Positions 26,133 to 46,456 of a stretch of DNA of 61,352 nucleotides are shown here, piece after piece. This DNA is from an uncultured Clostridia bacterium (lineage in GTDB: Bacteria > Bacillota > Clostridia > Oscillospirales > Oscillospiraceae). Position numbers and translations under genes: made by a program. The notes under the pieces are model-generated. The model was not told the origin of the DNA and made no database searches. It worked only from the letters and a program-made list of their open reading frames with translations. The stretch is taken from positions 1 to 61,352 of the forward strand of contig CAMCSE010000003.1 in assembly GCA_945877515.1 (NCBI GenBank), written 5' to 3'. Position 1 is the stretch's first letter. Each line of letters starts with the position of its first letter.

Positions 26133-27557
26133 ATGGCGCGGCTCATACAGAAAAGCGGTTACTTCAAAGGCGGCAGCGCTGCAGGATACCTGAAATATAT
26201 CGCGCAACGGGATGGCGTGGAGATCCTCACAGACACCGGCCCTGTCACGGAGAAGCAGCGGAAGCTGGTAGTACAGGTGCTGAAAGATTTCCCGGATGCC
26301 AAGGATCTGTTTGAGTATGAGGACTATCTGGCTACGCCTGGCCGGGCCACTGCCTCTGCTTTTATTGCTGCGGCGCTGGATACCAACCTGCACCGGATAG
26401 CGCCGGAGAGCGGCTATATGAAGTATATCGCACAGCGGCCACGGGCGGAAAAGCACGGTGGCCACGGTCTGTTCAGCGCCGCACCCGTCACCGATCTGGA
26501 CAAGGCGGTGGCGGAGTTGGAGACACACGAAGGCCATGTGTGGACGTTCATCTTCTCCCTGCGGCGGGAGGATGCGGTGCAGACCGGCTATAACAACGCC
26601 GCGGCATGGCGCAGTCTGCTGCTTCAGCAGTCCGGTACATTGGCGGACGCTATGCGCATCCCGCAGAATAAGCTGCACTGGTACGCCGCGTTCCATGACG
26701 AGGGCCACCATCCCCATATACACATGATGGTGTGGTCAGAGGATCCAAAGGAAGGGTATCTCACCAGAAAAGGGATCTCCGCCATGCGCTCCAAACTCAC
26801 CGGCACGATTTTCAAGGAGGAATTGCAGGATCTCTACGTCCGCAAGGAAACCGTCTATCGCCGCAGTGTCGAAACGGCACAGGAAAAGCTGCGCCAGCTG
26901 ACGGAGCAGCTGGAACAGCGCACCGCACCGGACGGCCAGATCGAGCATCTGATACAGAAACTGTCCGCACAGCTGGCGCAGACGGGCGGCAAGCATCAAT
27001 ACGGTTATCTGCCCAAGCCTGCCAAGGCACTGGTGGACGCCATCGTAGACCGGCTGGCTGTGCTGCCAGAGGTGGCTGCCTGCTACGAGCAGTGGCATTG
27101 CGTGAAGGATGAATTGGTACGGTTCCATAACCAGAATCCCCGCGAGCATCTGCCGCTCTCACAGCAGAAGGAATTCCGTGTCATTCAGAATATGGTGATC
27201 CGGGAGGCAGACCGCACCCGCGAAACACGGCGGGATATCGCGTTGCCTTTACCGGCAGAAGAAGCAGCCGCGGCAGAAATACCTGTGCGCTCGTCTCCTC
27301 CGCGACCCACCACAGAAGCGGGGCAGCCGCAGAATGTAACTCCGGTTCAGGACTCCGCCGCGCTCCCCGCCACCCTTCGCCTGCTGCACCACATGAGCCG
27401 TATCTTTCAGCACGACGCACAGATATCCCCTGTGACGATGCGCATCGACTCCAAGCGCCGCAAGCGGCTGCAGGAGAAACGAATGGCTCTGGGCCACAAG
27501 CGGGATGACCATGAGGAGGAACAGCGGCAGCATCAAAACAATCATCTGACTATCTGA
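26133..27557 (+). CDS. MobL/MobP-type relaxase (474 aa)
   Basis: Nicks oriT and pilots single-stranded DNA into the recipient. The N-terminus is ARLIQKSGYFKGGSAAGYLK and the metal-binding HUH-type motif is in AFHDEGHHPHIHMMVW. Catalytic Tyr candidates are Tyr residues in the first 30 aa and in PESGYMKYIAQR. The C-terminal third is coiled and Arg/Gln-rich. The start lies 3 bp after the accessory gene. Confidence 0.85.
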   Translation: MARLIQKSGYFKGGSAAGYLKYIAQRDGVEILTDTGPVTEKQRKLVVQVLKDFPDAKDLFEYEDYLATPGRATASAFIAAALDTNLHRIAPESGYMKYIAQRPRAEKHGGHGLFSAAPVTDLDKAVAELETHEGHVWTFIFSLRREDAVQTGYNNAAAWRSLLLQQSGTLADAMRIPQNKLHWYAAFHDEGHHPHIHMMVWSEDPKEGYLTRKGISAMRSKLTGTIFKEELQDLYVRKETVYRRSVETAQEKLRQLTEQLEQRTAPDGQIEHLIQKLSAQLAQTGGKHQYGYLPKPAKALVDAIVDRLAVLPEVAACYEQWHCVKDELVRFHNQNPREHLPLSQQKEFRVIQNMVIREADRTRETRRDIALPLPAEEAAAAEIPVRSSPPRPTTEAGQPQNVTPVQDSAALPATLRLLHHMSRIFQHDAQISPVTMRIDSKRRKRLQEKRMALGHKRDDHEEEQRQHQNNHLTI

Positions 27558-27567
27558 GGAGGAACCT

Positions 27568-28530
27568 ATGTCCCCATACATTCATTTCACACAAGGACAA
27601 AAAGACCGGGCGGCAGCCACAGATCTGGAATCGTTCCTGCAAAGCCGCGGCGAAACGCTGCTGCCCTCCGGTCGGGACAAGCGTCTTGCCAGTGACCACA
27701 GCGTTACCATACGGGGCAATCGCTGGTATGATCACTCCGCCCGTCAGGGCGGCAATGCCATCAGCTTCGTTCAGCGGTTCTGCCATCTGGGCTACGCCGA
27801 CGCTGTGTCGCTGCTGTTGTGCAGCGGCCATGCTCTTGTAAAACCAGAAAAAGAACCACCCAAAGAATTTACTCCACCGGCCGCCAACGGAACTATGCGC
27901 CATGTGTTTGCCTATCTGGTACAACATCGCCGCATCCACCGTGAGGTGGTTTCTTTTTTTGCCCACATGCGTCTCCTCTACGAGGATGCGGTACACCACA
28001 ACTGCGTGTTCGTAGGGCGGGATGCTCAGGGCGTCATGCGTCATGCCCATCTGCGCGGTACCGCCAGCCGGGGCAAGCCTTTCCGTCAGACGGTGGAGGG
28101 AAGCGACGCGCGTTACAGCTTTCACTACGCAGGCGGCAGCTCGTCACTCTATGTATTCGAGTCCCCTGTCGACCTGCTGTCCTATATCACCCTGCATCCG
28201 GACAACTGGCAGACGCAGAACTATGTGGCCTGCTGCGGCACGGCTTTCACGCCGGTGGAGCAGATGTTCCGCACCTATCCTCAAATCGACCGGGTGTCCC
28301 TCTGTCTCGACAACGATGAGGCCGGCCACAAGGCAGCGCAGCGCATGGAGGAATATCTCCGGGCAGAGGGTATCGTCTCCATGCGCTTGGTACCGGTGCA
28401 TAAGGACTGGAACGACGATCTGACACAACAGGAGGAATCATATGAGCCAAAATCTCTGGATCCTGCTGGCGGTGGGCGGTGTGGTGACGGTGGTCATCAT
28501 CGCCTTGTCGCTGCTGGCGGACAACCATAA
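27568..28530 (+). CDS. DUF3991/Toprim-domain protein (320 aa)
   Basis: The N-terminus (LESFLQSRGETLLPSGRDKR, then WYDHSARQGGNAISF) matches the DUF3991/primase-like zinc-free fold. The C-terminal half is a Toprim domain with SSLYVFESPVDLLSYI (E) and VSLCLDNDEAGHKAAQ (DxD). It resembles the CHC2/Toprim proteins paired with relaxases and may prime complementary-strand synthesis after transfer (inference). The end overlaps the coupling-protein gene by 89 bp. Confidence 0.8.
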   Translation: MSPYIHFTQGQKDRAAATDLESFLQSRGETLLPSGRDKRLASDHSVTIRGNRWYDHSARQGGNAISFVQRFCHLGYADAVSLLLCSGHALVKPEKEPPKEFTPPAANGTMRHVFAYLVQHRRIHREVVSFFAHMRLLYEDAVHHNCVFVGRDAQGVMRHAHLRGTASRGKPFRQTVEGSDARYSFHYAGGSSSLYVFESPVDLLSYITLHPDNWQTQNYVACCGTAFTPVEQMFRTYPQIDRVSLCLDNDEAGHKAAQRMEEYLRAEGIVSMRLVPVHKDWNDDLTQQEESYEPKSLDPAGGGRCGDGGHHRLVAAGGQP

Positions 28531-30214
28531 TCTTGATCACATCAAATCCAAAACCGTAGGCGACGGCCAGCACGGCACCGCACGCTGGGCTACCGAGCAG
28601 GAGATCCGCCGCAGCTACACCCATGTGCCCTTCCGTGTGCAGGACTGGCGTAAAGGAAAAAATCTCCCCCAAGCGCAGGGATTGGTGCTGGGCAGCCGCA
28701 AGGGAAAGAGCGGCACCACGGCGCTGGTGGACAGCGACGATATCCACTGTCTCATGATCGGTGCCTCCGGCGTGGGCAAGACCGCCTATTTTCTGTATCC
28801 CAATCTGGAGTATGCCTGCGCCTGCGGCATGAGTTTCTTTGCTCTGGACACCAAGGGTGACCTTGCCCGGAACTACGGTGCCGTGGCGCAGAAATACTAT
28901 GGCTACCATGTGTCGGTGGTGGACTTACGCAACCCTACACGTTCGGACGGGTACAACCTCATGACACTCATCAACCGCTATATGGACATTGGCCGAAACG
29001 ACCCCGGCAACATCAAAGCCTACGCCACAGCGGAAAACTATGCGAAGATCCTGGCCAGCAGTATCATCTCGCCGGACGGCAGTGAGGATCGCGGGCAGAA
29101 CGCCTACTTCTATGAGGCCGCCGAAGGACTGCTGGCAGCGGTGACGATCCTGCTGGCGGAGTTCCTGCCGCCGGACAGCCGCCACCCCACGGAACGGCGG
29201 CACATCGTGTCGGTGTTCCTGCTGATCCAGCAGATGCTGGCGCCCTCCGGCATTCGGGGAAAGCCCTACTTCAAGCTTCTGATGGATATGCTGCCCGTCG
29301 CCCACAGAGCACGGAATCTGGCGGCGTCGGCATTGGATACCTCAGAGCAGGCCATGGCCTCCGTTATGTCCACGGCGCTGGCGAGAATGAATGCTTTTCT
29401 GGACACGGCGCTGGAGCAGGTGGTGTGCTTCGACAGCAGCGTGGACGCAGAGAAGTTTGCAGCGGAAAAGACCGCCATCTTTCTGATCCTGCCGGAGGAG
29501 GACAGCACTAAGAATTTTATGGCAGGCTTGATGATCCAGGGCCTCTCCCACGAGCTGCTCACCCTCGCCGAAGCGCACGGAGGACGGCTGCCCAACCGGG
29601 TGGTCTTCTTCTGCGATGAGTTTGGCACCATGCCGGCTTTCGACGTAAGATCTCTGTTCAGTGCGGGGCGGTCCCGCGGGATCACGATGGTACCCATCAT
29701 ACAGTCACTGGCACAGCTGGATGAGAACTATGGAGAGAAAGGTGCGGAAACACTGGTGGATAACTGTCAGGACACCATTTTCGGCGGCTTTGCGCCCAAC
29801 AGCCAGACAGCGGAAAGACTGTCACAGGCATTGGGCAGCCGCACGGTGCTGTCCGGCTCCGTCAGCAAGGGCAAGAACGAGCAGAGCCAGAGCTTACAGA
29901 TGATGGAGCGTCCCCTGATGACGGCGGATGAACTGAAATCGCTGCCCAAAGGGACTTTTGTGGTGATGAAAACCGGCGCCCATCCCATGCAGACGAAGCT
30001 GCGGCTGTTTTCAGACTGGGGCATCACCTTTGACGAACCGTATGCCACACCGGAACACGCAGCCCGGCCGGTGGCCTATGCCAGCCGGGAGGAACTATTC
30101 CGCAGTGTGCAGCTTGCCTATTGCAAAAGCAGCGACGTGTATGCCGAGCAGTACAGTCAGCATGAGATCTCCGGCGAGCGATCCTTTAACAGTTTCGAGG
30201 AGGACACGCTATGA
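28442..30214 (+). CDS. virD4: VirD4/TraG-type coupling ATPase (590 aa)
   Basis: Links the relaxosome to the T4SS. One N-terminal membrane helix (WILLAVGGVVTVVIIALSLL) is followed by a soluble part with Walker A GASGVGKTAYFLYPN near residue 107 and Walker B in RVVFFCDEFGTMPAF. The ATPase core is complete and the size is normal. The ATG lies inside the preceding gene's end, and the stop overlaps the next start (ATGA). Confidence 0.92.
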   Translation: MSQNLWILLAVGGVVTVVIIALSLLADNHNLDHIKSKTVGDGQHGTARWATEQEIRRSYTHVPFRVQDWRKGKNLPQAQGLVLGSRKGKSGTTALVDSDDIHCLMIGASGVGKTAYFLYPNLEYACACGMSFFALDTKGDLARNYGAVAQKYYGYHVSVVDLRNPTRSDGYNLMTLINRYMDIGRNDPGNIKAYATAENYAKILASSIISPDGSEDRGQNAYFYEAAEGLLAAVTILLAEFLPPDSRHPTERRHIVSVFLLIQQMLAPSGIRGKPYFKLLMDMLPVAHRARNLAASALDTSEQAMASVMSTALARMNAFLDTALEQVVCFDSSVDAEKFAAEKTAIFLILPEEDSTKNFMAGLMIQGLSHELLTLAEAHGGRLPNRVVFFCDEFGTMPAFDVRSLFSAGRSRGITMVPIIQSLAQLDENYGEKGAETLVDNCQDTIFGGFAPNSQTAERLSQALGSRTVLSGSVSKGKNEQSQSLQMMERPLMTADELKSLPKGTFVVMKTGAHPMQTKLRLFSDWGITFDEPYATPEHAARPVAYASREELFRSVQLAYCKSSDVYAEQYSQHEISGERSFNSFEEDTL

Positions 30215-32382: not shown

Positions 32383-33043
32383 ATCTCTTCTTCATTTTCA
32401 TCGTCTCTACAGTTGATGAGATCGATGTCCGGCATGCCGGTTCTTCTGGGCACACTCTCAGCTTATCTGGTTTCACGTCACTTTGTGTCTTGCGCTGACT
32501 CGTTATGATGCCTTTGATACTTTCAAAATCATGTTCAGATGGAAGCACTTTACCCGTTGGCAGGGAGCGCCGTTTCCGGTGCTTCTCCGCAGGAACAAGG
32601 GCTTACAATAACCGGGAAGCCTTGCTGTTACGCACTTTTTACGGCCTGCTTGTATGTTTGTCTCTCTTTACTTGTACGGGGTCAGTACGATGCCACATGG
32701 GGTAAATACACCATGCTCCGATGGAGCGGTGGCGGACACCATGCCGCTGAACTCGGCTGCGGAAGGCTCCGCCGATGTCCTGTGATCCGCCCGGCAACGA
32801 ATCGGGGATGCGAACCCTGCATGACCGGCGCCGCACTCTGGCTGCGGCATACAGGGGCGGGAGCTTGCCTCTCCCTTGCCAACTCTTACGCTCGCTCTTG
32901 TACGATAGCCCGGGAAAGCTGTGTAGAACATAGCGCACTGAGGGAAAAGGCAGGTACTTCTTGCATTCTGTTCAAATTTCCAATATAATTACAGGAAAGT
33001 ATTGTAGATCGTAATGAATTATTGAGTTGCAGGGAGGGACAAA
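32383..33043. other. Non-coding gap between ICE backbone and radical SAM cargo
   Basis: 660 bp with no convincing gene. It shows small palindromes (CTCCGATGGAG at 32718; GGAAGGCTCC/GGCGG around 32761) and changes from mid-GC to AT-rich near 32950. This probably marks the left junction of the cargo. A weak 149-codon plus-strand frame lacks a start signal. Confidence 0.45.
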
Positions 33044-33592
33044 GTGGCTTTATATACAAAAAAACTGATAATGACCACATTTCAGAATATGTTAGAAGAA
33101 ATGCCTTTCGACAAAATTACCGTATCGTCATTAGTACGCAGGGCAGGCATTAGTAATAATACATTTTATTACCACTATCAGGATATTTACGCACTGTTGG
33201 ACGCTTGGTTTCGAGAAAAAGTTGAGTATTTTGTACCTAACGGAGAGCCAATAGAGTGGAAAAGTACCACAAAAGCTGTCCTAAAGCAGTGCAAGGCGCA
33301 TCCCAAAACCATCTATCATGTGTTTGATTGTCTTTCCCGTGACCGATTGGAGCGATATATCTTCTCGCTGACAGACGACGTTTTTTATCGGCTGGTACAA
33401 CAGGCTGCGGGAGAGCGTCCACTTACTGATGCTTATCTGCGAAGTATCGCTTCATTTTGCCGTTACGCCTATATTGGCTTTGTTATGCAGTTCTTTTGGA
33501 ACCACATGACAAATGACATTGACGAAAGTGTTGATCGTTTGGCAACCCTTTTTGATAGCTTTCTAACTGGCGCAATCCATGCTGCTGAATAA
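33044..33592 (+). CDS. TetR/AcrR-family transcriptional regulator (182 aa)
   Basis: The N-terminal HTH (TFQNMLEEMPFDKITVSSLV, then RRAGISNNTFYYHYQDIYAL) is of the TetR type, with a helical ligand-binding C-domain containing RSIASFCRYAYIGFVMQFFW. The GTG start follows GGGAGGG. It lies at the head of the cargo and is separated from rSAM1 by a terminator and promoter, so it most likely controls the operon in response to a small molecule, possibly acyl-type (inference). Confidence 0.85.
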   Translation: MALYTKKLIMTTFQNMLEEMPFDKITVSSLVRRAGISNNTFYYHYQDIYALLDAWFREKVEYFVPNGEPIEWKSTTKAVLKQCKAHPKTIYHVFDCLSRDRLERYIFSLTDDVFYRLVQQAAGERPLTDAYLRSIASFCRYAYIGFVMQFFWNHMTNDIDESVDRLATLFDSFLTGAIHAAE

Positions 33593-33605
33593 TCAAAGAT
33601 GGTAA

Positions 33606-33637
33606 GGGACTGTTCATGAGAACAGTCCCCTTTTTTG
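33606..33637 (+). terminator. Intrinsic terminator after tetR
   Basis: GGGACTGTTC (33606-33615), ATGA loop, GAACAGTCCC (33620-33629), then CTTTTTT. Confidence 0.88.
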
Positions 33638-33715
33638 CGTAAACTCCCCTTTTTGCGCAAAAACACACACTTTACTGAATCTATTGCATTTCAGAGAAAA
33701 CGACTTTTTTCGCCA

Positions 33716-33744
33716 TGGAACATGTGTGTAGATTCCGTTAAGAT
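33716..33744 (+). promoter_or_regulatory. Possible promoter of the radical SAM operon
   Basis: A TAAGAT -10-like box at 33739-33744, with a weak TGGAAC (33716-33721) 17 bp upstream. The -35 is poor, as often in activator- or repressor-controlled promoters. The interval from the tetR terminator to rSAM1 (33640-33785) is the natural TetR operator site, but no clear palindrome was identified. Confidence 0.4.
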
Positions 33745-33761
33745 AGAGTCAACCCGATCCA

Positions 33762-33776
33762 ATAAAACAGAAAGGA
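33762..33776 (+). repeat. Leader repeat copy 1 (ATAAAACAGAAAGGA)
   Basis: Identical 15-bp leader to that at 38775-38789, directly before the start codon of rSAM1 and including its ribosome-binding site. The paralogues thus share their translation-initiation region, pointing to duplication together with the leader. Confidence 0.8.
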
Positions 33777-33785
33777 ACTGTTGTT

Positions 33786-35171
33786 ATGAATGCCTCTGAA
33801 GTACTAAAAGGATTTGCTATGAAGCAAGTTTACGGCTATTTGGATAAAGATCCTGATGCCAATATCCCAAAGCTGTTGGACATGCTGGAGAAGTATGACA
33901 AGAGCGGCGAGGCCATAACCTCGCAAGCGGAGGGTATTCGCACAGCGCTGGCAGACCCCGATAATAACTGGTCAAAGCTGGTAAAAAGCCTGTGGACTGA
34001 CATTGATGCCGGCCAACGAAAAAAACTGGTAGAGACTGTTGTGATCAACGGCACGTTGATTGGAACCCCCGCAACGATGAAAATGCAGGATAAATATCAA
34101 TGCAACATTCCTTGGGCGATTCTGATGGATCCCACATCCGCCTGTAACCTTCACTGTACCGGCTGCTGGGCAGCGGAATACGGCAACAAGCTGAATCTGA
34201 CCTTTGAACAGCTGGACGATGTGATCCGTCAGGGAAAAGAGCTTGGCACCTATGTATACATCTACTCCGGAGGCGAACCTCTGGTGCGGAAGGCCGATCT
34301 GATCCGGCTTTGCGAGAAACACAGTGATTGTGCGTTTCTTGCCTTTACCAATGGCACACTGATCGATGATGATTTCGCCGATGAAATGCTGCGTGTCAAG
34401 AATTTCGTTCCTGCTATCAGTATTGAGGGCTTTGAAGAGGCAACGGATTTCCGGCGCGGAAATGGAACGTATCAGAAAGTCATCGAGGCCATGAAGCGTC
34501 TGAAAGCACGCAAGCTTCTGTTCGGCATCTCCTGCTGTTACACCAGCAAGAACGTCGAAGTCATCGGCAGCGAGGAATATTTTGATTCCATGATTAGCAT
34601 GGGTGCAAAGTTTGCGTGGCTGTTTACTTATATGCCCATCGGCGCGGCAGCCGTACCGGAGCTGATCGCCACAGCGGAGCAGCGCAAGTTTATGTATGAT
34701 CAAATCCACAAATTCCGCAAGACAAAGCCCATCTTCACCATGGATTTCTGGAACGACGGCGATGCTGTTGGCGGCTGTATCGCAGGCGGGCGCGGATATT
34801 GCCACATCAACGCAAATGGTGATATGGAGCCTTGTGCCTTTATCCATTATTCAGATTCCAACATCAAGGAGAAGTCCCTCATTGAATGTTACCAATCCCC
34901 TCTGTTTATGGCATATCGCCGCAACCAGCCCTTTAATGAGAATATGCTGCGGCCCTGCCCGGTATTGGATAATCCTGGTCGCCTGACGCGGATGGTTGAC
35001 GAATCCGGCGCACACTCCACCGACCTGCAAAGTCCTGAGCGCGCCTGCGATTACTGCAACCGCTGTGTGCCTGCCGCGGAGAAATGGGCGCCGGTAGCGG
35101 ATGAGCTGTGGAACTCGCTGCCCAACAAAAAGGGAACGCAGTATACCGGGAAGATGGCTAAAAAATCCTGA
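33786..35171 (+). CDS. Radical SAM/SPASM enzyme 1 (461 aa)
   Basis: The cluster motif CNLHCTGC gives C120-x3-C124-x2-C127, preceded by ILMDPTSA and followed by WAAEYG and a GGEPLVRKADLIRLCEKH strand-helix (GGE of SAM binding). The second half carries a SPASM-type Cys set (GGCIAGGRGYCHINANGDME, then PCAFIHYS; LRPCPV; ACDYCNRC) that should bind one or two more Fe-S clusters. A helical 100-residue N-terminal domain precedes the core. Substrate unknown: SPASM proteins modify peptides, sugars or lipids. Position before metK and membrane/lipid genes suggests membrane lipid chemistry (inference). It is about 50% similar by eye to the second copy at 38798. Confidence 0.88.
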   Translation: MNASEVLKGFAMKQVYGYLDKDPDANIPKLLDMLEKYDKSGEAITSQAEGIRTALADPDNNWSKLVKSLWTDIDAGQRKKLVETVVINGTLIGTPATMKMQDKYQCNIPWAILMDPTSACNLHCTGCWAAEYGNKLNLTFEQLDDVIRQGKELGTYVYIYSGGEPLVRKADLIRLCEKHSDCAFLAFTNGTLIDDDFADEMLRVKNFVPAISIEGFEEATDFRRGNGTYQKVIEAMKRLKARKLLFGISCCYTSKNVEVIGSEEYFDSMISMGAKFAWLFTYMPIGAAAVPELIATAEQRKFMYDQIHKFRKTKPIFTMDFWNDGDAVGGCIAGGRGYCHINANGDMEPCAFIHYSDSNIKEKSLIECYQSPLFMAYRRNQPFNENMLRPCPVLDNPGRLTRMVDESGAHSTDLQSPERACDYCNRCVPAAEKWAPVADELWNSLPNKKGTQYTGKMAKKS

Positions 35172-35185
35172 CGGGAGGCGGTACT

Positions 35186-36334
35186 GTGAGCAAACTGCTG
35201 TTTACATCCGAATCCGTGACTTGCGGGCACCCGGATAAAGTTTGCGATCAAGTTGCGGATAAGATTTTAGATGAGCTGTTGGCACAGGATTCCCAGTCAC
35301 GTGTGGCATGTGAGGTGACCTGCGCCGAAAACCAGATGCATATTTTCGGAGAAGTAACCACTGAAGCAGAAGTGAATTACCGCGCCGTGGCACGGCAGGT
35401 CATTGAGGAGATCGGCTACACGCAACCGGGGCGAGGTTTCGATGCCGCTACTTGCGGTATCTCAGTCGATCTGCATTGTCAGTCACCGGACATCGCACGC
35501 GGGATCAGCCGCGGCCGTGATGCGGAGCGGATGGATGCCGGCGCGGGCGATCAGGGAATGATGTTTGGCTATGCCTGCAACCAGACAGATAGCCTGATGC
35601 CGCTGCCCATCGAATTGGCTCATGAACTGGCAAAGCGGCTGGAGTCAGTGCGCCGTACCGGTGAACTTCCGTTTCTGCTGCCGGACGGCAAGACGCAGGT
35701 AACTGTCGAGTATGACGGAAACCGTCCTGTTCGCATTGCATCCGTATTGGTATCCGCTCAGCATCAGGAGAATGTATCCATCGAGGCGGTACGCAGTGAA
35801 GTACGACGCCATGTCATGGAAGCCATACTGCCGCCGGATATGCTGGATGAAAACACGCAATTCTTTGTCAATCCCACCGGACGCTTTGTGTACGGCGGCC
35901 CTGCCGCTGATTCCGGTCTGACCGGGCGGAAGCTGATGGTAGACACCTATGGCGGCTATGCTCGTCATGGCGGCGGCGCATTTTCCGGGAAGGACGCCAC
36001 CAAGGTTGACCGCAGCGGTGCGTATATGGCCCGCTATATTGCCAAAAACATTGTGGCCCAGGAGTTGGCTGACCAGTGTGAGGTACAGCTTAGCTATGCA
36101 ATTGGCTTGGCGGAGCCTTTATCCGTTCGGATCGAGACATTTGGAACAGAACGGGTGGATCGGGAAATCCTCAGTCGTGCGATTATCAACAGCGTGGATA
36201 TGCGCCCTGCTGCGATCATCCAGTGCTTTGGCCTGACACGTCCCATTTTTTCCAATGTATCCTGTTATGGGCATTTTGGCAGTAATGCTTGCCTGATGCC
36301 GTGGGAGAAGACCGATCTGCAGATCAAGCTGTAA
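35186..36334 (+). CDS. metK: S-adenosylmethionine synthetase (382 aa)
   Basis: Makes SAM from methionine and ATP. Signature stretches are visible: TSESVTCGHPDKVCDQVAD, the ATP-loop hexapeptide GAGDQG, and GGGAFSGKDATKVDRSGAYM. The length is standard. The GTG start follows GGGAGG, 14 bp after rSAM1. A full metK on an ICE, inside a radical SAM operon, should raise the local SAM supply; the host must also have its own essential metK. Confidence 0.93.
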   Translation: MSKLLFTSESVTCGHPDKVCDQVADKILDELLAQDSQSRVACEVTCAENQMHIFGEVTTEAEVNYRAVARQVIEEIGYTQPGRGFDAATCGISVDLHCQSPDIARGISRGRDAERMDAGAGDQGMMFGYACNQTDSLMPLPIELAHELAKRLESVRRTGELPFLLPDGKTQVTVEYDGNRPVRIASVLVSAQHQENVSIEAVRSEVRRHVMEAILPPDMLDENTQFFVNPTGRFVYGGPAADSGLTGRKLMVDTYGGYARHGGGAFSGKDATKVDRSGAYMARYIAKNIVAQELADQCEVQLSYAIGLAEPLSVRIETFGTERVDREILSRAIINSVDMRPAAIIQCFGLTRPIFSNVSCYGHFGSNACLMPWEKTDLQIKL

Positions 36335-36357
36335 ATTTGTCAGGAGGTAATATTTCT

Positions 36358-37206
36358 GTGAAAGTGAAGATCACGTCGGACAGCACCTGCGACCTGTCGC
36401 CGGAATTGCTGCGGCACTATGATATTTCCATTACCCCCTTATCGGTCTGCTGCGGCGAAAAGGTCGGTGCAGACGGAACAGAGATCACGCCGGAGGATAT
36501 CTACGAATTTGTACGCACAAAAGGAGAACTGCCGCAGACCAGTGCCGTAAATGTCATCGACTACATAGAGGCGTTTCATCAATGGGTGAACGAGGGATAC
36601 TGCGTCGTACATTTTTGCATCAGCAGTGATTTCTCCAGCACATATCAAAATGCCTGCCTTGCTGCAAAGGAAGTCGGAAGTGTATTCGTCGTGGATTCCC
36701 GGAATCTGTCAACGGGGCAAGGCTTGCTGGTACTTCATGCAGCAGAAATGGCGGCCAAGGGTCACTATGCACAGGAAATATGGAAAGTCTGTACAGCGCT
36801 CACAAAGCAAGTGGAAGCCAGTTTTGTCATAGATAACCTGGACTACCTCTATAAAGGTGGACGATGTTCTGCTTTAAGCGCTTTTGGTGGAAATCTGCTT
36901 CGCCTGAAACCATGTATTGAAGTTAAGGATGGCAAAATGCTCCCCAGCAAAAAGTACAGGGGGAAGATTGAAAAAGTCATGTTGCAATATGTGGAGGATC
37001 GTCTCAGCGGCCGAAGTGACATTGATAAACACCGCATTTTTATTACGCACACCAAATGCAGTGAAGAAGCAGTCCGGGCTGTGCGCGACAAGATACTGGA
37101 AATTGTACCGGATTTTGAAGAAATTCTGGAAACAACTGCAGGTGCGACGATCACCTCCCATTGTGGGCCAAATACACTGGGTATTCTGTTTTTGAGGAAA
37201 AGCTAG
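36358..37206 (+). CDS. DegV-family fatty-acid-binding protein (282 aa)
   Basis: DegV proteins bind a fatty acid in a hydrophobic tunnel, and the FakB subset presents it to fatty-acid kinase. N-terminal ITSDSTCDLSPELLRHYDIS, central FCISSDFSSTYQNACLAA and DSRNLSTGQGLLVLHAAEMA, and C-terminal TSHCGPNTLGILFL are standard DegV motifs. The GTG start at 36358 follows AGGAGG. There is no FakA nearby, so the protein would use the host kinase or simply shuttle acyl chains (inference). Confidence 0.87.
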   Translation: MKVKITSDSTCDLSPELLRHYDISITPLSVCCGEKVGADGTEITPEDIYEFVRTKGELPQTSAVNVIDYIEAFHQWVNEGYCVVHFCISSDFSSTYQNACLAAKEVGSVFVVDSRNLSTGQGLLVLHAAEMAAKGHYAQEIWKVCTALTKQVEASFVIDNLDYLYKGGRCSALSAFGGNLLRLKPCIEVKDGKMLPSKKYRGKIEKVMLQYVEDRLSGRSDIDKHRIFITHTKCSEEAVRAVRDKILEIVPDFEEILETTAGATITSHCGPNTLGILFLRKS

Positions 37207-37291
37207 TGTGACCGACGCTGCCATGTGTGGATGTGAAGATTGGCAGCTTAGCACAGGAAGTTTTGTCAAAAGCGATTATCCGTGTTTGGGA

Positions 37292-37326
37292 CTGCGGCGG
37301 GCGCATGCCACCCGCCGCAGCCTTTT
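37292..37326 (+). terminator. Hairpin between degV and the PAP2-like gene
   Basis: CTGCGGCGGG (37292-37301) and CCCGCCGCAG (37311-37320) form a strong hairpin followed by CCTTTTA. It may attenuate transcription, giving less of the membrane proteins than of the enzymes. Confidence 0.75.
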
Positions 37327-37345
37327 ATAAAGGAGGACTTCCCTG

Positions 37346-37909
37346 ATGAGTGAAGATCTGGCAAAAGCGATTCGCATCGTAACATTGCCGCAAGTTATGG
37401 TGTTTTTTCTGATTTTACTTTTGGGAGATCAGATTCCGGTTTGGCACGATGGAATGGCTATTGTTCTTTTATGTATACTACCGTTACTGTCCTATCTATA
37501 TTGGAGAATAACGCCGAAACTGCGTGAGCAGGGGCGGAAGTCCCAAAGGAAGCTGGCGATTGCTTTTTCTGTGGTGGGATATGTGCTCGGCACGGTGTAC
37601 TGCATCACATCCAACGGCAGCCAGACAGAGCTGTTCATGTATCTGTGCTATGTGACCTGCGGTGCGCTGATCGCACTGTCCTCTTATGCCTTTCACATCA
37701 AGAGCAGCGGCCATGCTGCGGGGGTTGTAGGCCCTGTCATGATTCTGTCTCTGCGAGTGAGCCCATGGTTCCTGTTCGGGCTTTTACTGATGATACCCGT
37801 AGGGATCAGTTCGGTCAGGCTTGGCCGCCATACACCAAAGGAACTACTCTTAGGAAGCTGCTATCCCGTTGTCGTTGCATTGCTCTTGCAGCTGTTCCTC
37901 AGGGGATAA
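37346..37909 (+). CDS. PAP2-like integral membrane protein (187 aa)
   Basis: Six hydrophobic segments. Between helices it shows SSGHAAG (like the PSGH motif 2 of PAP2 phosphatases) and SSVRLGRHTPKELLLG (like motif 3, SR-x5-H-x3-D/E). The first KxxxxxxRP motif is not clear, so catalysis is uncertain. PAP2 proteins remove phosphate from phosphatidate or prenyl diphosphates at the membrane. It lies after an AAAGGAGG and before the VTT gene; both may handle lipid intermediates (inference). Confidence 0.6.
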   Translation: MSEDLAKAIRIVTLPQVMVFFLILLLGDQIPVWHDGMAIVLLCILPLLSYLYWRITPKLREQGRKSQRKLAIAFSVVGYVLGTVYCITSNGSQTELFMYLCYVTCGALIALSSYAFHIKSSGHAAGVVGPVMILSLRVSPWFLFGLLLMIPVGISSVRLGRHTPKELLLGSCYPVVVALLLQLFLRG

Positions 37910-37925
37910 GGGAATCAGACGGCTC

Positions 37926-38636
37926 ATGCGTAAACAAAGAAATATCTCACCAGATGAGCGGCGAATACGGCTGGCAAAGTGTGTACTGGGACTGGTGTGG
38001 CTCACGATCATCGCAGTGTGCCTGCTGCACAAGGATGAGTTTACGTTGGAGGGCATCCTGAACGATACTCCTCGTCAACCGGTATTGGCGGCGCTGGTGC
38101 TGCTGGTGCTGTTTGCAGTCAAAAGTCTGAGCATCTTTTTATATTCTGGACTGCTGTATGCGGCCAACGGTGTTTTGTTTCCGTTACCTGCGGCTATTGC
38201 CGTGAGCATTGCAGGGACTGCGGTGATGGTCAGCATCCCCTATTGGCTGGGAAAGCGGCTGGGCAGCCAGGCGGTACAGTATATTCTAAACCGGTATCCC
38301 AAGGCATCTGTGCTCCGCGACATTCGCAGCGGGAGCGATTTCTTTTTCGTCCTGATCGTCCGGCTACTGGGTATCCTGCCTGCGGATGTGGTCAGTGCCT
38401 ATATGGGCGCGGTGGGAGTGAAGTACCGGGACTACTTGCCTGCGTGTATTCTGGGTTTCCTGCCCCCCTGTGTATTGTTTCCCATCATGGGCATGAGTCT
38501 CTCAGATGTGCATTCTCCTCAATTTCTTATCGCGGCAGGTATTGAATTTGTGGCTATGCTGCTCTCCTGCATCGTGTTTCATTTCTATCGAAAGAAACAC
38601 TGCACCAAAAAACAGGAAGGGGAGCAACCGTCATGA
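37926..38636 (+). CDS. TVP38/TMEM64 (VTT/DedA-type) membrane protein (236 aa)
   Basis: The VTT core is recognisable: SIAGTAVMVSIPYWLGKRLG, then FFFVLIVRLLGILPADVVSA and YMGAVGVKYRDYLPACILGF. DedA/VTT proteins include lipid scramblases and flippases for undecaprenyl phosphate or phosphatidylethanolamine. Start chosen at 37926 (MRKQRNISPDERRIRLAKC) because the longer frame begins with a Cys/Ser-rich stretch read from the previous gene. The stop TGA overlaps the ATG of the 30-codon ORF. Confidence 0.82.
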   Translation: MRKQRNISPDERRIRLAKCVLGLVWLTIIAVCLLHKDEFTLEGILNDTPRQPVLAALVLLVLFAVKSLSIFLYSGLLYAANGVLFPLPAAIAVSIAGTAVMVSIPYWLGKRLGSQAVQYILNRYPKASVLRDIRSGSDFFFVLIVRLLGILPADVVSAYMGAVGVKYRDYLPACILGFLPPCVLFPIMGMSLSDVHSPQFLIAAGIEFVAMLLSCIVFHFYRKKHCTKKQEGEQPS

Positions 38637-38725
38637 TCAGAGCGTTGGACAGGGCGCTGTATCTTGAACCGGGCATTGTGGTACACCAAAGCCTACGGGA
38701 ACTAAGCGCAATACTGACGAATTAA
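38633..38725 (+). CDS. Tiny coupled ORF (30 aa)
   Basis: The ATG overlaps the VTT stop (ATGA), a strong sign of translational coupling. The peptide is MIRALDRALYLEPGIVVHQS followed by LRELSAILTN. It could be a leader or a small partner protein, or the beginning of a gene cut short by duplication of rSAM2. No homology recognised. Confidence 0.4.
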   Translation: MIRALDRALYLEPGIVVHQSLRELSAILTN

Positions 38726-38774
38726 ATATATTTTTATAACGAGACTTTCTCTCATGACAGAAGAATTATCACAT

Positions 38775-38789
38775 AAAACAGAAAGGATG
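38775..38789 (+). repeat. Leader repeat copy 2 (ATAAAACAGAAAGGA)
   Basis: Exact copy of 33762-33776, in front of rSAM2 at nearly the same distance to its start codon (8 versus 9 bp). Confidence 0.8.
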
Positions 38790-38797
38790 TGTGACCT

Positions 38798-40171
38798 ATG
38801 AGTATTACCGAAAAAATCTCTCATGCGGCGGAACGTAAGGCATTTGAAAAAATTCTTGATTCCATGCTGAAAAAGGGGCAGACACAAGACGTGGGCGATC
38901 TGGCCAAGCAGCTGATCGACATGATCCAAAAGATCCACAAGGATACATGGAGCGACAAATCCTATGAGTCGCTGCGGATGATCGTGGAAAACCCCGACGG
39001 CAAATGGGCACATTATACCCAGCGGCTTATTCGTGAGAATGATCCCTATATTCTTAAGACCTTCCTGACCAATGTGGCCTATGAGGGTGGCTTCCGGGGC
39101 TATCAGACGGCACAGGAAAATGCCGCAAAGTACGATATCAATGTGCCTTGGCTCATTCTGATGGATCCCACCTCCGCCTGCAACATGCATTGCACCGGCT
39201 GTTGGGCCGCAGAATACGGACACAAGCAGAGCCTGACCTTTGAGGAGATGGATCGTGTCCTCACCGAGGCCAAGGAGCTGGGTACCCATGCCTGCCTGTT
39301 CACCGGCGGCGAACCGCTGCTGCGGAAAAAGGATATCATTCGCCTGTGCGAAAAGCACCGCGATATGGCATTTCATGCATTCACTAACGGCACTCTTATT
39401 GATGAAGAGTTCTGTCAGGAAATGCTGCGGGTGGGCAACTTCTTTGTCTCTATCAGTGTGGAAGGATTTGAGGAGGCCAACGATGGCCGCCGTGGTCAGG
39501 GACACTTTAAGAAGGCGCTGGATGCCATGGATCTGATGCACAGCCATCGGATACCCTTCGGTGTGTCTATCTGCTACACCAGCAAAAACTATCAAGTCGT
39601 TACCAGCGATGAGTTTCTTGATCTGCTGATCTCCAAAGGCTGCATCTTTGCGTGGTATTTCCACTATATGCCGGTAGGCATCAATGCAGATACCTCTCTG
39701 TTGCTGACACCGGAACAACGTGCCTATATGAAGGATCGTGTCCGCGAAATCCGTGGCATTACCGGCGGCAAGGAACTGTACTGCATTGACTTCCAAAACG
39801 ACGGCGAATTTGCTGGCGGCTGTGTGGCGGGTGGACGTATCTACTGCCACATCAACGCCGCTGGCGACGTTGAACCCTGCGTGTTCATTCACTATTCCAG
39901 TGCCAACATCCGGGAAAAGAGCTTCTTGGAGTGCTTGCAGCAGCCGCTGTTCAAACTGTATCGTAAAGGACAGCCATTCAATAACAACCATCTGCGTCCC
40001 TGCCCTATGCTGGAAAACCCGGAGCTGCTGCCAAAAATGGTAGCGGAATCCGGCGCGCATTCCACGGATCTGGAAGCGCCGGAGAGTGCCGAGCACCTGT
40101 GCGAGAAGTGTAAGTCTTATGCCGACTGCTGGAGGCCAGAAGCAGACAAGTTGTGGACAGAAGAACATTGA
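38798..40171 (+). CDS. Radical SAM/SPASM enzyme 2 (457 aa)
   Basis: Paralogue of the enzyme at 33786 with the same order of parts. A helical N-terminus is followed by C128-x3-C132-x2-C135 in ACNMHCTGCW, FTGGEPLLRKKDIIRLCEKH, and a SPASM region GGCVAGGRIYCHINAAGDVE then PCVFIHYS, LRPCPM and HLCEKCKSYADCW. The paralogues differ most in the first 100 residues and in the segment between the barrel and SPASM (AWYFHYMPVGINADTSL versus AWLFTYMPIGAAAVPEL), so they may act on two related substrates or two sites of one substrate. Confidence 0.88.
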   Translation: MSITEKISHAAERKAFEKILDSMLKKGQTQDVGDLAKQLIDMIQKIHKDTWSDKSYESLRMIVENPDGKWAHYTQRLIRENDPYILKTFLTNVAYEGGFRGYQTAQENAAKYDINVPWLILMDPTSACNMHCTGCWAAEYGHKQSLTFEEMDRVLTEAKELGTHACLFTGGEPLLRKKDIIRLCEKHRDMAFHAFTNGTLIDEEFCQEMLRVGNFFVSISVEGFEEANDGRRGQGHFKKALDAMDLMHSHRIPFGVSICYTSKNYQVVTSDEFLDLLISKGCIFAWYFHYMPVGINADTSLLLTPEQRAYMKDRVREIRGITGGKELYCIDFQNDGEFAGGCVAGGRIYCHINAAGDVEPCVFIHYSSANIREKSFLECLQQPLFKLYRKGQPFNNNHLRPCPMLENPELLPKMVAESGAHSTDLEAPESAEHLCEKCKSYADCWRPEADKLWTEEH

Positions 40172-40185
40172 ACGGAGGTGAAAAT

Positions 40186-40392
40186 ATGAAAAAAACGAAT
40201 CAGGACTGCTGCCAGAGAAAACATGGCAAGTGTATGAGCATCGTGAAATTCATTCTGGGTGCTGGTGTCCTTAGTATTCTGGTACACACGGCACATAATT
40301 GGCTCAGTTCTTATAAGGAGTACGCTTTAGAGGACTTCATTTCCCGCAGCAATGAAGATATCAGTTCCGAGTACGCATACTATGCAGATTGA
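40186..40392 (+). CDS. Cys-rich one-helix membrane peptide after rSAM2 (68 aa)
   Basis: The N-terminus MKKTNQDCCQRKHGKC holds three cysteines, then a membrane helix (SIVKFILGAGVLSILVHTA) and an acidic Tyr/Glu-rich tail (EDFISRSNEDISSEYAYYAD). GGAGGTG precedes the ATG, only 14 bp after the radical SAM gene, so they are co-expressed. It may anchor or deliver the enzyme at the membrane. A RiPP precursor role is possible but the helix makes it less likely. No family recognised. Confidence 0.55.
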   Translation: MKKTNQDCCQRKHGKCMSIVKFILGAGVLSILVHTAHNWLSSYKEYALEDFISRSNEDISSEYAYYAD

Positions 40393-42884: not shown

Positions 42885-42895
42885 GGGATATGGTC

Positions 42896-44542
42896 ATGAG
42901 GAAAAGAGTTTGCTGTCTTTATCGCGTTTCTACATTGAAGCAAGTTGAAAAGGATGACATCCCTATGCAGAAGCAGCGATGCCACGAGTTTGCCGCCCAA
43001 ATGGGCTGGGACATCGTTCGGGAGTTTTCGGAAAAAGGGGTGTCCGGCTTTAAGGTCTCTGCTAAGCAGCGTGACGCCATACAGGAGATCCAGCGTGAAG
43101 CGGCGCTGAATACCTTCGATATTCTTCTTGTTTTCATGTTTGACCGGCTGGGCCGCCGCGATGATGAAACGCCATTTATCGTGGAATGGTTTGTCAATAA
43201 CGGCATTGAGGTCTGGAGTGCAGAGGAAGGTCAGCAGCGATTTGATAACCATGTGGACAAGCTGCTCAACTACATCCGCTACTGGCAAGCCTCCGGTGAG
43301 AGCATTAAAACTTCCATCCGCACAAAGACAAGACTCGGTCAAATCGTCATGGAAGGTCGATTTCGCGGGGGCTATGCGCCTTACGGGTATCAGCTGGTAA
43401 AAAAAGGTCGCATCGGAAAAAAGAATCGAGAACTGTTTGACATTGAGGTAAATCCGCTGGAAGCAGCTGCAGTTCGCCGCATTTTTGATTTGGCGGATCA
43501 GTATGGGTATGGTGGACGAAGAACCTCTACCATCCTCAAGGAAGAAGGCATCATTAATCTCCGCACCGGGGAACCGTTTCACTACTCTTCTATCCAAAAT
43601 ATTCTCATCAATGTCGCCTATACCGGCGTGCTGCGAAGTGGCGAGAGCGTCTCCGAAGTTTTTCCGGAACTGCAGATTATTACGCCGGAACAATTTGAAC
43701 GAGTTCAAAAAGGCCGCGAACAGCGGTCAGCGGAATATCTTGCAAAGTGCGAGGCAGCAGGAAGTTTGCAGACGATTCAATTGCAGGACGGCAGCGAAAT
43801 GGACGTCTCTCGTCCGTCTCGAAGCTACCCGAGAAAGAATATGGGGAGCGCGCTCCTCTCCGGCAACGTGTACTGCGGTCACTGCGGTGGCCGCCTTTTT
43901 GCATCAACGGCGAGAAAAACGCATCACCCAGTGGACGGGACCAATGGCCGCGTTGCAATTTATAAATGTTACAATCGCACCCAGCATAAAGGCAGCTGTG
44001 ACGGCCCAACTACATACCGGGCGGAGAAAGTTGACGCTGTGGTCAGCAAGATCATTCATGATGTACTGCAAAAGGCCGGTACAGTCAGAGAGTCTGATAT
44101 CGTAAGCCAACAGATCGGGGCAACCGCTGTAGATCTGAATCAGCAAATAAGGCAGTCCAAACTGGAGCTTTCCAGGAAACGCATAGAGCTAGGGAAATTG
44201 GAGGGTCTCATGCTGGACTCTTTGGATGGTAAATGCGTATTTACACCAGAACAAGTCAAAAGCAGAATGGACTCTGTACAGGAGGCGATGACATCACTGT
44301 CCGCCAATGTTGAGTCTTTAGAAGCACGGCTACATGATAGCGAACAAATCGCAAAAGAGCTGGCAGCACAACACAAGCAACTCCTATCATGGGCGGAGAT
44401 GTTCGATGCCGCCAGCTCTGCTGAGAGGAAACTTATTGCCTCACAGCTCATCAAAGCTGTCACACTGAGCCGCGGCTATGATATGCAAATCGAGTTCAAC
44501 ATTTCCGAGGCCCAGTATCTGAATGGGATGAAGATGGGGTGA
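42896..44542 (+). CDS. Large serine recombinase (548 aa)
   Basis: Site-specific recombinase of the TnpX/TndX type. The N-terminal resolvase domain has the catalytic Ser in LYRVSTLKQ and FMFDRLGRRDDETPFIVEWF. It is followed by a recombinase domain (GYGGRRTSTILKEEGIINLR), a zinc-ribbon (VYCGHCGGRLFASTAR, then YKCYNRTQHKGSC) and a coiled-coil C-terminus (SKLELSRKRIELGKLEGLML). The start at 42896 is better placed to AAGGGA than 42890. Such enzymes cut at a 2-bp core rather than leaving a 62-bp tRNA repeat, so it is uncertain that it integrated this element. Confidence 0.9.
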   Translation: MRKRVCCLYRVSTLKQVEKDDIPMQKQRCHEFAAQMGWDIVREFSEKGVSGFKVSAKQRDAIQEIQREAALNTFDILLVFMFDRLGRRDDETPFIVEWFVNNGIEVWSAEEGQQRFDNHVDKLLNYIRYWQASGESIKTSIRTKTRLGQIVMEGRFRGGYAPYGYQLVKKGRIGKKNRELFDIEVNPLEAAAVRRIFDLADQYGYGGRRTSTILKEEGIINLRTGEPFHYSSIQNILINVAYTGVLRSGESVSEVFPELQIITPEQFERVQKGREQRSAEYLAKCEAAGSLQTIQLQDGSEMDVSRPSRSYPRKNMGSALLSGNVYCGHCGGRLFASTARKTHHPVDGTNGRVAIYKCYNRTQHKGSCDGPTTYRAEKVDAVVSKIIHDVLQKAGTVRESDIVSQQIGATAVDLNQQIRQSKLELSRKRIELGKLEGLMLDSLDGKCVFTPEQVKSRMDSVQEAMTSLSANVESLEARLHDSEQIAKELAAQHKQLLSWAEMFDAASSAERKLIASQLIKAVTLSRGYDMQIEFNISEAQYLNGMKMG

Positions 44543-46432: not shown

Positions 46433-46456
46433 ATCGTTTTCTCCTTTTTAATTGGA

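What the first reader, a model, noticed from the sequence alone, without database searches (positions are those of the whole stretch)
33044..40392. Mobile TetR - radical SAM - MetK - DegV - PAP2-like - VTT - radical SAM cargo: candidate membrane-lipid modification system
Seen: two SPASM-type radical SAM paralogues with intact CxxxCxxC and SPASM cysteines flank a full metK, a DegV fatty-acid-binding gene and two integral membrane genes with PAP2-like (SGHA, GRHTPKE) and TVP38/DedA-like motifs, all on one strand behind a TetR gene. Known: radical SAM enzymes join or modify lipid chains in some prokaryotes, DegV binds fatty acids, PAP2 proteins act on phosphatidate, DedA/VTT proteins move lipids. 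Inference: an ICE-borne set that makes SAM locally and uses it to change membrane lipids, switched by an acyl-sensing TetR. I know no described system with this composition. Alternative: the radical SAM pair modifies a peptide or cofactor and the membrane genes export it.
Basis: partly seen in the sequence, partly recalled or inferred. Interest (0 to 1): 0.88.

Follow-up and report, generated by a model that had tools for sequence, protein, structure and literature searches.

The report
Mobile lipid-modifying radical-enzyme gene set
A transferable DNA element in a bacterium carries two related radical enzymes together with an enzyme that makes their cofactor, a fatty-acid-binding-type protein and membrane proteins; related enzymes elsewhere often keep similar company, which suggests, but does not prove, a system that chemically alters membrane lipids, perhaps by joining their tails.

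Summary
Others add oleate hydratase, patatin, MMPL, LPG_synthase_TM or Ger-like genes. The window's MetK sits in a well-supported clade of six, five of them enzyme-linked. Best reading: radical modification of membrane-lipid acyl chains, most likely Mss-like tail-to-tail coupling, with its own SAM supply. The chemistry is inferred: no Mss sequence was held, structure prediction was off, the best solved matches are peptide- or protein-modifying enzymes (SkfB for rSAM2, a sulfatase-maturating enzyme for rSAM1), and 71 of 111 loci have no lipid-type neighbour. Lipid-modifying cassette: about 0.7; C-C coupling: about 0.45. New variant of a known kind.

The parts
33044..33592 (+). TetR-family regulator (TetR_C_8)
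   Evidence: Pfam; TetR is the commonest neighbour of relatives, 41 of 111, and leads the blind tally of next-door ORFs; many of the TetR hits are only 20-40% identical
33606..33629 (+). Terminator-like hairpin after TetR
   Evidence: consensus match only; a comparable hairpin follows TetR in L034. No promoter-like match was found in the gap to rSAM1, so a promoter there is assumed
33786..35171 (+). rSAM1, radical SAM/SPASM enzyme
   Evidence: CxxxCxxC at 120/124/127, further Cys 331, 339, 350, 391, 424, 427
35186..36334 (+). MetK, S-adenosylmethionine synthetase, cluster-type clade
36358..37206 (+). DegV/FakB-like protein (the listed ORF starts at 36289 TTG; 36358 GTG has the better ribosome site)
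37292..37320 (+). 29-bp inverted repeat in the DegV-PAP2-like gap, conserved in L034 upstream of VTT
37346..37909 (+). Six-TM membrane protein, weakly PAP2-like with degenerate motifs
37926..38636 (+). VTT/DedA-family membrane protein
   Evidence: a homologue is fused to a CDP-alcohol phosphatidyltransferase in L041
38798..40171 (+). rSAM2, radical SAM/SPASM enzyme, paralogue of rSAM1
   Evidence: CxxxCxxC at 128/132/135
40186..40392 (+). 68-aa ORF with one TM segment, 14 bp after rSAM2, no relative found in the loci searched
26133..27557 (+). MobL relaxase of the carrying element
28442..30214 (+). Type IV coupling protein of the carrying element
42890..44542 (+). Large serine recombinase at the right side of the element
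   Evidence: FAD oxidoreductase, anion transporter and LysR genes follow

Best explanation
An inducible, horizontally carried membrane-lipid modification cassette. Inferred mechanism: DegV (FakB-like) feeds exogenous or recycled fatty acids into phospholipid synthesis. The two SPASM radical SAM enzymes then abstract hydrogen from acyl chains of membrane phospholipids and most likely join chains tail to tail, as Mss and Tes do, giving diabolic-acid-type or otherwise cross-linked lipids. VTT and the small membrane protein handle or move the lipid. MetK refills SAM, because a bulk lipid reaction at two SAM per C-C bond uses far more SAM than making a trace peptide or cofactor, and TetR switches the set on. 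Shown here: gene content, recurrent linkage, a separate MetK clade, mobility genes of the carrier, lipid-type company of a part of the relatives. Inferred: substrate, reaction, division of labour between the two enzymes, and the signal.
For: Linkage in 111 independent loci, window left out: TetR 41, DegV 17, DUF308 15, MMPL 10, MetK 9 (plus 2 with a MetK-like protein), oleate hydratase 6, patatin 6, VTT 4, and 5 with hits best matched by the CDP-alcohol-transferase-VTT fusion, which half not resolved. Densities fall with distance: TetR 79 to 7 per Mb, DegV 40 to 2, MetK 15 to 0, VTT 9 to 0 between 0-1.5 kb and 5-8 kb. A blind Pfam tally of the longest ORF on each side of the enzyme (202 ORFs) gives TetR_C_8 18, DegV 6, DUF308 at least 4, VTT at least 3, MetK 3; none of these is among the 25 families shown for 95 of 146 far ORFs. 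Pfam on chosen neighbours: oleate hydratase, patatin, CDP-alcohol transferase plus VTT, MMPL. Homologues of an LPG_synthase_TM protein (PF03706) start 53-173 bp after the matched enzyme stretch in 5 loci and 0.9 kb after it in 2. Ger-like proteins with two PF01869 stretches and PF09989 were seen by Pfam in L132 and L155 and by similarity in L066. rSAM1+rSAM2 type pairs recur in L044, L046, L047 and L060. MetK: a six-row clade at 100/99 holds the window copy; 5 of 6 are enzyme-linked, the sixth is next to TetR and LPG_synthase_TM near a contig end, with no enzyme in the 9.6 kb held. Two SAM per C-C bond in Tes: PMC9433317 passages. Mss plus Ger homologues in 277 Oscillospiraceae and 561 Lachnospiraceae species: PMC13274423 section 5.
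Against: By sequence the best solved match of rSAM2 is SkfB, a peptide thioether enzyme (9e-13; family profile 4e-16), and of rSAM1 an anaerobic sulfatase-maturating enzyme (4e-7); Tes 7tol gets 1e-4 and 0.035, profile 1e-3, over part of the core only. The best NCBIfam models, far below cut-off, are haem-pathway enzymes. No Mss sequence could be compared, and structure prediction was off. 71 of 111 loci have no lipid-type neighbour within 6 kb. Only 4 of the 9 enzyme-linked metK loci (L041, L044, L062, L175) hold the window's MetK type; L107 has another, and those of L036, L059, L130 and L171 lie among other metK branches. Oleate hydratase does not fall off cleanly with distance (9, 3, 3, 5 per Mb), nor does DUF308 (27, 0, 16, 0). 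PAP2-like occurs near the enzyme in only 1 other locus. The closest locus, L034 (rSAM2 92% identical), lacks rSAM1, MetK, DegV and PAP2-like in the 17 kb held. Several query families (oleate hydratase, patatin, MMPL, DUF308, LPG_TM, Ger, three of four DegV queries) were picked from the loci themselves, so their counts are not blind.
Confidence: 0.45

Rival explanations
1. Membrane-lipid or fatty-acid modification by the two radical SAM enzymes, but not tail-to-tail coupling: for example methylation, cyclisation, desaturation or thiolation of acyl chains, or detoxification of free fatty acids together with oleate hydratase, patatin and MMPL efflux.
For: Same neighbourhood evidence. Oleate hydratase and TetR-DUF308-MMPL groups suggest fatty-acid stress. 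Two paralogues suggest two steps. Oleate hydratase is over cut-off in 31 of 200 family genomes, 17 of them among the 63 with a strong enzyme match; Fisher 0.003, not corrected for kinship or assembly quality.
Against: A linked SAM synthetase argues for a bulk SAM-consuming reaction, which fits coupling best but does not exclude the others. Phosphatidyltransferase-type, LPG_synthase_TM and Ger-like neighbours fit lipids in the membrane better than free fatty acids.
Confidence: 0.27
2. The radical SAM pair matures a ribosomal peptide or a protein and the membrane genes export it.
For: Best solved matches are SkfB (rSAM2) and an anaerobic sulfatase-maturating enzyme (rSAM1). SPASM domains are common in peptide maturases (recalled). 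A 68-aa single-TM ORF follows rSAM2.
Against: The small ORF has no relative in the loci searched. Among 498 short ORFs with a ribosome-site-like motif (starting within 300 bp downstream or 700 bp upstream of 145 enzyme copies), the 12 largest groups, the only ones shown, are what look like TetR fragments (7 loci) and groups of 2-3 loci, one of them a Cys-rich small protein in 3 related loci. MetK, DegV, CDP-alcohol transferase and oleate hydratase are not known to me as peptide-maturation partners.
Confidence: 0.1
3. The enzymes act on a tetrapyrrole or another soluble cofactor, like NirJ/AhbD.
For: Best NCBIfam matches are NirJ2 and AhbD.
Against: Scores of 82-95 bits against cut-offs of 500; no haem-pathway family among the families shown for neighbouring ORFs (first 25 of 113 and of 91).
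Confidence: 0.06
4. A chance assembly of cargo genes on a mobile element without a shared function.
For: 71 of 111 loci lack lipid-type neighbours. L034 carries only TetR-VTT-rSAM2 of the set.
Against: TetR, DegV, MetK and VTT recur near independently placed relatives and fall off with distance; cluster-type MetK clade.
Confidence: 0.12

Closest known systems
Mss, bacterial membrane-spanning lipid synthase (Sahonero-Canavesi et al. 2022, not held; described in PMC13274423 and PMC11868695)
   Same: Enzyme that couples two fatty-acyl chains; homologues reported in Oscillospiraceae and Lachnospiraceae; proposed by its authors to act on lipids with a PG head group; reported together with Ger/PlsA homologues, and a protein of the two-activation-domain Ger type (2x PF01869 + PF09989) is in the window's genome. 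That Mss is a radical SAM enzyme is recalled and fits its stated likeness to Tes with a SAM site
   Different: No Mss sequence was available to compare. A cassette with metK, degV, VTT and TetR on a conjugative element, and two paralogues side by side, is not mentioned in the passages and sections read
Tes / GDGT-MAS, archaeal tetraether synthase (PDB 7tol, 7tom; PMC9433317, PMC8941075)
   Same: CxxxCxxC radical SAM core, C-terminal auxiliary-cluster region, lipid setting as inferred here
   Different: Only about 106 residues of the core of rSAM2 align (E 1e-4; profile 1e-3; rSAM1 0.035). The published Tes homologue criterion (E below 1e-50) is not met, and there are no conserved cysteines in the first 100 residues, where Tes has rubredoxin and auxiliary-cluster domains
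SkfB, anaerobic sulfatase-maturating enzyme and other SPASM maturases
   Same: Best solved sequence matches; radical SAM plus SPASM-type C-terminus
   Different: No shared precursor peptide family found near the enzymes
FakB/DegV fatty-acid-binding proteins
   Same: Window DegV matches the FakB1 model at 145 bits
   Different: Below the FakB1 equivalog cut-off of 350; no kinase gene among the window ORFs of the cassette

Membership tests
Mss (membrane-spanning lipid synthase) | E at most 1e-30 and over 30% identity to Mss (criterion in PMC13274423) | not testable with these tools
   The 2022 paper is not held and no named Mss sequence was at hand
Mss (membrane-spanning lipid synthase) | Radical SAM core with CxxxCxxC (recalled as a feature of Mss) | tested here: met
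Mss (membrane-spanning lipid synthase) | Fold like Tes with lipid pockets | not testable with these tools
   structure prediction switched off
Mss (membrane-spanning lipid synthase) | Product: C-C coupled acyl chains (diabolic acids) | not testable with these tools
   needs lipidomics
Mss (membrane-spanning lipid synthase) | Occurrence together with Ger/PlsA | tested here: inconclusive
   Ger-type protein in the window's genome and a Ger-like gene near 3 relatives, but PF09989 is in 144 of 200 family genomes, so co-occurrence says little
Tes / GDGT-MAS | Homology at E below 1e-50 | tested here: not met
   7tol E 1.2e-4 (rSAM2), 0.035 (rSAM1), 1.1e-3 (profile)
Tes / GDGT-MAS | N-terminal rubredoxin and auxiliary-cluster Cys/His motifs | tested here: not met
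   no cysteine column at 40% or more of 62 rows before residue 114 of rSAM2; histidines not examined
RiPP-type SPASM maturase | Adjacent conserved precursor peptide | tested here: not met
   145 enzyme copies, ORFs of 20-120 aa with a ribosome-site-like motif only
Methionine adenosyltransferase (MetK) | Three MAT domains, TIGR01034 equivalog cut-off | tested here: met
   532 bits against 309; all three Pfam domains
PAP2 phosphatase | Pfam gathering score of PF01569 | tested here: not met
   18.6 against 27.2 bits
Integrative conjugative element cargo | Relaxase, coupling protein and recombinase on either side | tested here: met
   MobL, T4CP, TraG/VirB4-like, serine recombinase; left end and attachment sites not determined, transfer not shown

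The most novel reading that the evidence does not exclude
A mobile, regulator-controlled 'membrane rebuilding' cassette: two paralogous radical SAM enzymes jointly cross-link phospholipid acyl chains in anaerobic Clostridia (for instance one joining chains tail to tail, the other making a second, different bond), fed by a SAM synthetase of a clade devoted to bulk lipid chemistry, with variants that recruit oleate hydratase, a phosphatidyltransferase-VTT fusion, LPG_synthase_TM proteins or Ger. Membrane architecture would then be a horizontally transferable trait.
Probability: 0.3. Interest if true: 0.85.

Novelty: new variant of a known kind. Interest (0 to 1): 0.62.

Why it matters
Homologues of a lipid-joining enzyme (Mss) are reported in many hundreds of Clostridia species (PMC13274423, Table 2), while I found no account of partners, regulation or SAM supply in the passages read. 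If this locus is of that kind, it names concrete partners, gives a compact gene set that can be cloned as one unit, links the chemistry to its own SAM synthetase, and shows it on a conjugative element. That would make it directly testable whether membrane-spanning or otherwise cross-linked lipids are a transferable trait.

Tried and rejected
Tes membership: rejected on sequence. RiPP reading: no precursor family found. Haem-pathway reading: scores far below cut-off. PAP2 as a firm assignment: rejected as sub-threshold. Ger/PlsA co-occurrence across the family: uninformative, PF09989 in 144 of 200 genomes. Plasmid relatives: E. albertii and K. pneumoniae plasmids carry enzymes 34% (99% of the query covered) and 35% (83% covered) identical to rSAM2, with no lipid gene among the annotated features shown, in a gene table that is incomplete; the E. 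albertii gene had no blastn match in the E. coli collection. Literature searches: no paper held at least three of radical SAM, DegV, metK and SPASM; none held radical SAM, oleate hydratase and gene cluster together; the two papers with radical SAM, SAM synthetase, operon, fatty acid and TetR are on other subjects by their listing. Not tested: significance of Ger-like genes near 3 loci; number of DegV copies per genome. A promoter-like match between TetR and rSAM1 was looked for and not found; the scan found fewer promoter-like and terminator-like sites in the region than shuffles give. The origin of L034's smaller set (loss there or gain in the window) could not be polarised. Attachment sites and left end of the element were not determined. 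'Independent' loci means no shared enzyme at 90% identity or more; 140 loci gave 111. Of 76 strong enzyme places outside the window I fetched 60; of 305 relatives the tool kept 80.

Full report
WHAT IS THERE. On one strand lie a TetR regulator (33044-33592), rSAM1 (33786-35171), MetK (35186-36334), DegV (likely 36358-37206), a six-TM protein (37346-37909), a VTT/DedA protein (37926-38636), rSAM2 (38798-40171) and a 68-aa single-TM ORF (40186-40392). The CxxxCxxC motif is invariant across 62 aligned sequences (two window enzymes, 60 relatives); in the C-terminal part three cysteines are invariant and two are conserved in 92%. The PAP2 label is weak: 18.6 bits against a cut-off of 27.2. The cluster is 50% G+C against 57% for 44891-61352. 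General functions of families named below (FakB-type DegV, VTT/DedA, LPG_synthase_TM, MMPL, oleate hydratase) are recalled knowledge attached to Pfam or NCBIfam names.

CARRIER. The window holds a MobL relaxase, a type IV coupling protein, a TraG/VirB4-like ATPase and a Toprim protein to the left (19041-30214), and a large serine recombinase at 42890-44542. After it come an FAD oxidoreductase, an anion transporter and a LysR gene. An integrative conjugative element is the natural reading; its left end and attachment sites were not determined. The carrier is not constant. G007 (L161) has a relative of the enzyme about 4 kb from a 60% identical coupling protein. L163 has a serine recombinase 1.3 kb away, and L034 has one about 4.5 kb after the enzyme. 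With the window's relaxase, coupling protein and recombinase as queries, only L161 and L163 of 140 loci gave a hit; that test is narrow, as it missed L034's recombinase.

THE ENZYME FAMILY. rSAM1 and rSAM2 are 53% identical. In the tree rSAM2-type genes form one branch (SH-aLRT 98); rSAM1-type genes fall mainly in two (84 and 89, below the 95 mark). Of 200 genomes of the same family, the window's included, 63 have a match at about 1e-79 or better (my cut). Of 295 genomes of the order, 34 match the profile at 1e-80 or better. The distribution is patchy and the named relatives include Lachnospiraceae, Erysipelotrichaceae, Atopobiaceae, Treponema, Sphaerochaeta and MAGs labelled Chloroflexi (record titles). 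rSAM1-type and rSAM2-type genes stand together in L044, L046, L047 and L060 besides the window; L078 has two rSAM2-type genes. The window's rSAM1 lies in the same sub-branch as that of L047 but in another than those of L044, L046 and L060, so such pairs may have formed more than once.

LINKAGE TEST. Merging loci that share an enzyme at 90% identity left 111; the window was left out. Within 6 kb: TetR 41, DegV 17, DUF308 15, MMPL 10, MetK 9, CmpB 9, patatin 6, oleate hydratase 6, RelA/SpoT 6, hits best matched by the CDP-alcohol transferase-VTT fusion 5 (which half not resolved), VTT 4, MetK-like 2, PAP2-like 1. Densities for 0-1.5, 1.5-3, 3-5 and 5-8 kb: TetR 79, 29, 13, 7 per Mb; DegV 40, 10, 10, 2; MetK 15, 10, 5, 0; VTT 9, 3, 0, 0; patatin 6, 7, 0, 2; MMPL 6, 16, 5, 2; but oleate hydratase 9, 3, 3, 5 and DUF308 27, 0, 16, 0 show no clean fall. 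For MetK about 1.2 loci are expected against 9 seen. At least one lipid-type neighbour was present in 40 of 111; 71 had none. The queries MetK, VTT, PAP2-like and TetR came from the window. Oleate hydratase, patatin, MMPL, DUF308, LPG_TM, Ger and three of the four DegV queries came from the loci, so their counts are not blind. TetR is a large family and many hits are only 20-40% identical. A blind control used the longest ORF of at least 100 aa in the 900 bp on each side of the enzyme (202 ORFs): TetR_C_8 18, DegV 6, DUF308 at least 4, VTT at least 3, MetK 3. None of these is among the 25 families shown (of 121) for 95 of 146 ORFs about 6 kb away; single hits there could be hidden by the cut.

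LIPID COMPANY. Pfam names for chosen neighbours: oleate hydratase (PF06100, 694 bits), patatin phospholipase, CDP-alcohol phosphatidyltransferase fused to VTT, MMPL transporter, alpha/beta hydrolase; ABC1/UbiB kinase. Homologues (24-30% identical) of an LPG_synthase_TM protein (PF03706 in L206) start 53-173 bp after the matched enzyme stretch in L074, L076, L079, L086 and L088, and a 41% one at 0.9 kb in L130 and L131. A protein with two PF01869 stretches and PF09989, the architecture that PMC13274423 (section 15 part 1) ties to validated glycerol ester reductases, lies 2.0 and 2.8 kb from the enzyme in L132 and L155; a homologue cut by the contig end lies 4.6 kb away in L066. One such protein of 1429 aa is in the window's own genome on another contig. 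Oleate hydratase is over cut-off in 31 of 200 family genomes, 17 of them among the 63 with a strong enzyme match (Fisher 0.003, kinship not corrected); the window's genome has none.

A SECOND metK. The window's genome gives one metK, the cluster copy, but the assembly is 80.6% complete, so a missing other copy is likely: two of three same-genus genomes have a full-length metK of 54-55% identity and the third a 120-residue match. In G201, G205, G130 and G200 a metK 62-73% identical to the window's coexists with another of 53-55%; G202 has one at 70% plus a fragment; G207 has 58%, 53% and 48%. Two of the 21 genomes searched (G029, G208) gave no metK match at all, so absence in this search is not proof. 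The tree puts the window copy with L041, L044, L062 (L180), L175 (L179) and one of G200 (L181) in a clade of six with support 100/99. Five of these six are within 6 kb of an enzyme of this family. The sixth (L206) is next to a TetR gene and an LPG_synthase_TM gene; no enzyme is in the 9.6 kb held, and the contig ends about 70 bases beyond the TetR match. The metK genes near L036, L059/L061, L130 and L171 belong to other branches and that of L107/L110 to a branch of its own. So linkage of a metK to the enzyme seems to have arisen more than once, while the devoted clade is only part of it.

MECHANISM. In Tes two SAM molecules are spent per C-C bond, and the enzyme binds two lipids with one chain of each in hydrophobic pockets (PMC9433317, passages). 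Bacterial Mss is reported to couple acyl chains, proposed to act on PG-bearing lipids, and, with Ger, to have homologues in 277 Oscillospiraceae and 561 Lachnospiraceae species (PMC13274423: abstract, passages, section 5, section 15 part 1). A bulk, SAM-spending reaction on membrane lipids would explain a linked MetK better than maturation of a peptide or cofactor. DegV as a fatty-acid carrier, the phosphatidyltransferase-VTT fusion, LPG_synthase_TM proteins and Ger-like reductases point to phospholipids. This is inference from company, not a shown activity.

WHAT SPEAKS AGAINST IT. By sequence the nearest solved structures are SkfB for rSAM2 (9e-13) and for the family profile (4e-16), and an anaerobic sulfatase-maturating enzyme for rSAM1 (4e-7): peptide- or protein-modifying enzymes. 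Tes matches weakly over part of the core (1e-4, 0.035, profile 1e-3). The best NCBIfam models are haem-pathway enzymes far below cut-off. L034, with the closest rSAM2 (92%), holds only TetR, VTT and rSAM2 of the set in 17 kb, so rSAM1, MetK, DegV and PAP2-like are not needed everywhere. A 39-bp stretch with the inverted repeat is shared with the window upstream of PAP2-like/VTT, which fits a loss or gain of that block without telling which. I could not compare the enzymes with a true Mss, nor model them.

VERDICT. Real, on a conjugative element, with recurrent and partly lipid-type linkage. Lipid modification is probable (about 0.7); Mss-like coupling is the best single reaction (about 0.45). 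The kind of chemistry is known; the cassette with its own SAM synthetase, regulator and membrane partners was not found in the searches made, hence a new variant of a known kind.

Noticed in passing
window 32680-32803 (-) and 41881-41961 (+): Rfam cis-regulatory motifs xerDC RNA and pemK RNA flank the cargo region on either side.
   Followed up: no
window 3867-7849: Pilus/adhesin-like genes on the conjugative element: SpaA plus thioester domain, and a Gram-positive pilin with LPXTG anchor.
   Followed up: no
window 14250-16191: Two overlapping ORFs match different parts of a C-5 cytosine DNA methylase, suggesting a split or frameshifted gene.
   Followed up: no
L115 2254-3633; L116 11884-13185: Plasmids of Escherichia albertii and Klebsiella pneumoniae carry 34-35% identical relatives of rSAM2 with no lipid gene among the annotated features shown; no blastn match to the E. 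albertii gene in the E. coli collection.
   Followed up: partly
L041 9437-10669: Single ORF fusing a CDP-alcohol phosphatidyltransferase with a VTT domain, directly after an rSAM2-type gene and before degV.
   Followed up: partly
L047 3446-4315; L039 from 5456: A divergent MetK-like protein (in L047 only part of the N-terminal MAT domain scores) sits next to rSAM2-type genes.
   Followed up: no
L068, L070, L071 downstream of rSAM2: A small cysteine-rich 64-68 aa protein, possibly a BFD-type ferredoxin by eye, follows the enzyme in three related loci.
   Followed up: no
L044 1-1664; L046 9326-11264: An ABC1/UbiB-type kinase gene with a short phasin-like neighbour (my label, by eye) lies near the enzymes in two loci.
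   Followed up: no
window 60624-60705 (-): Glycine riboswitch aptamer near the right end of the window.
   Followed up: no
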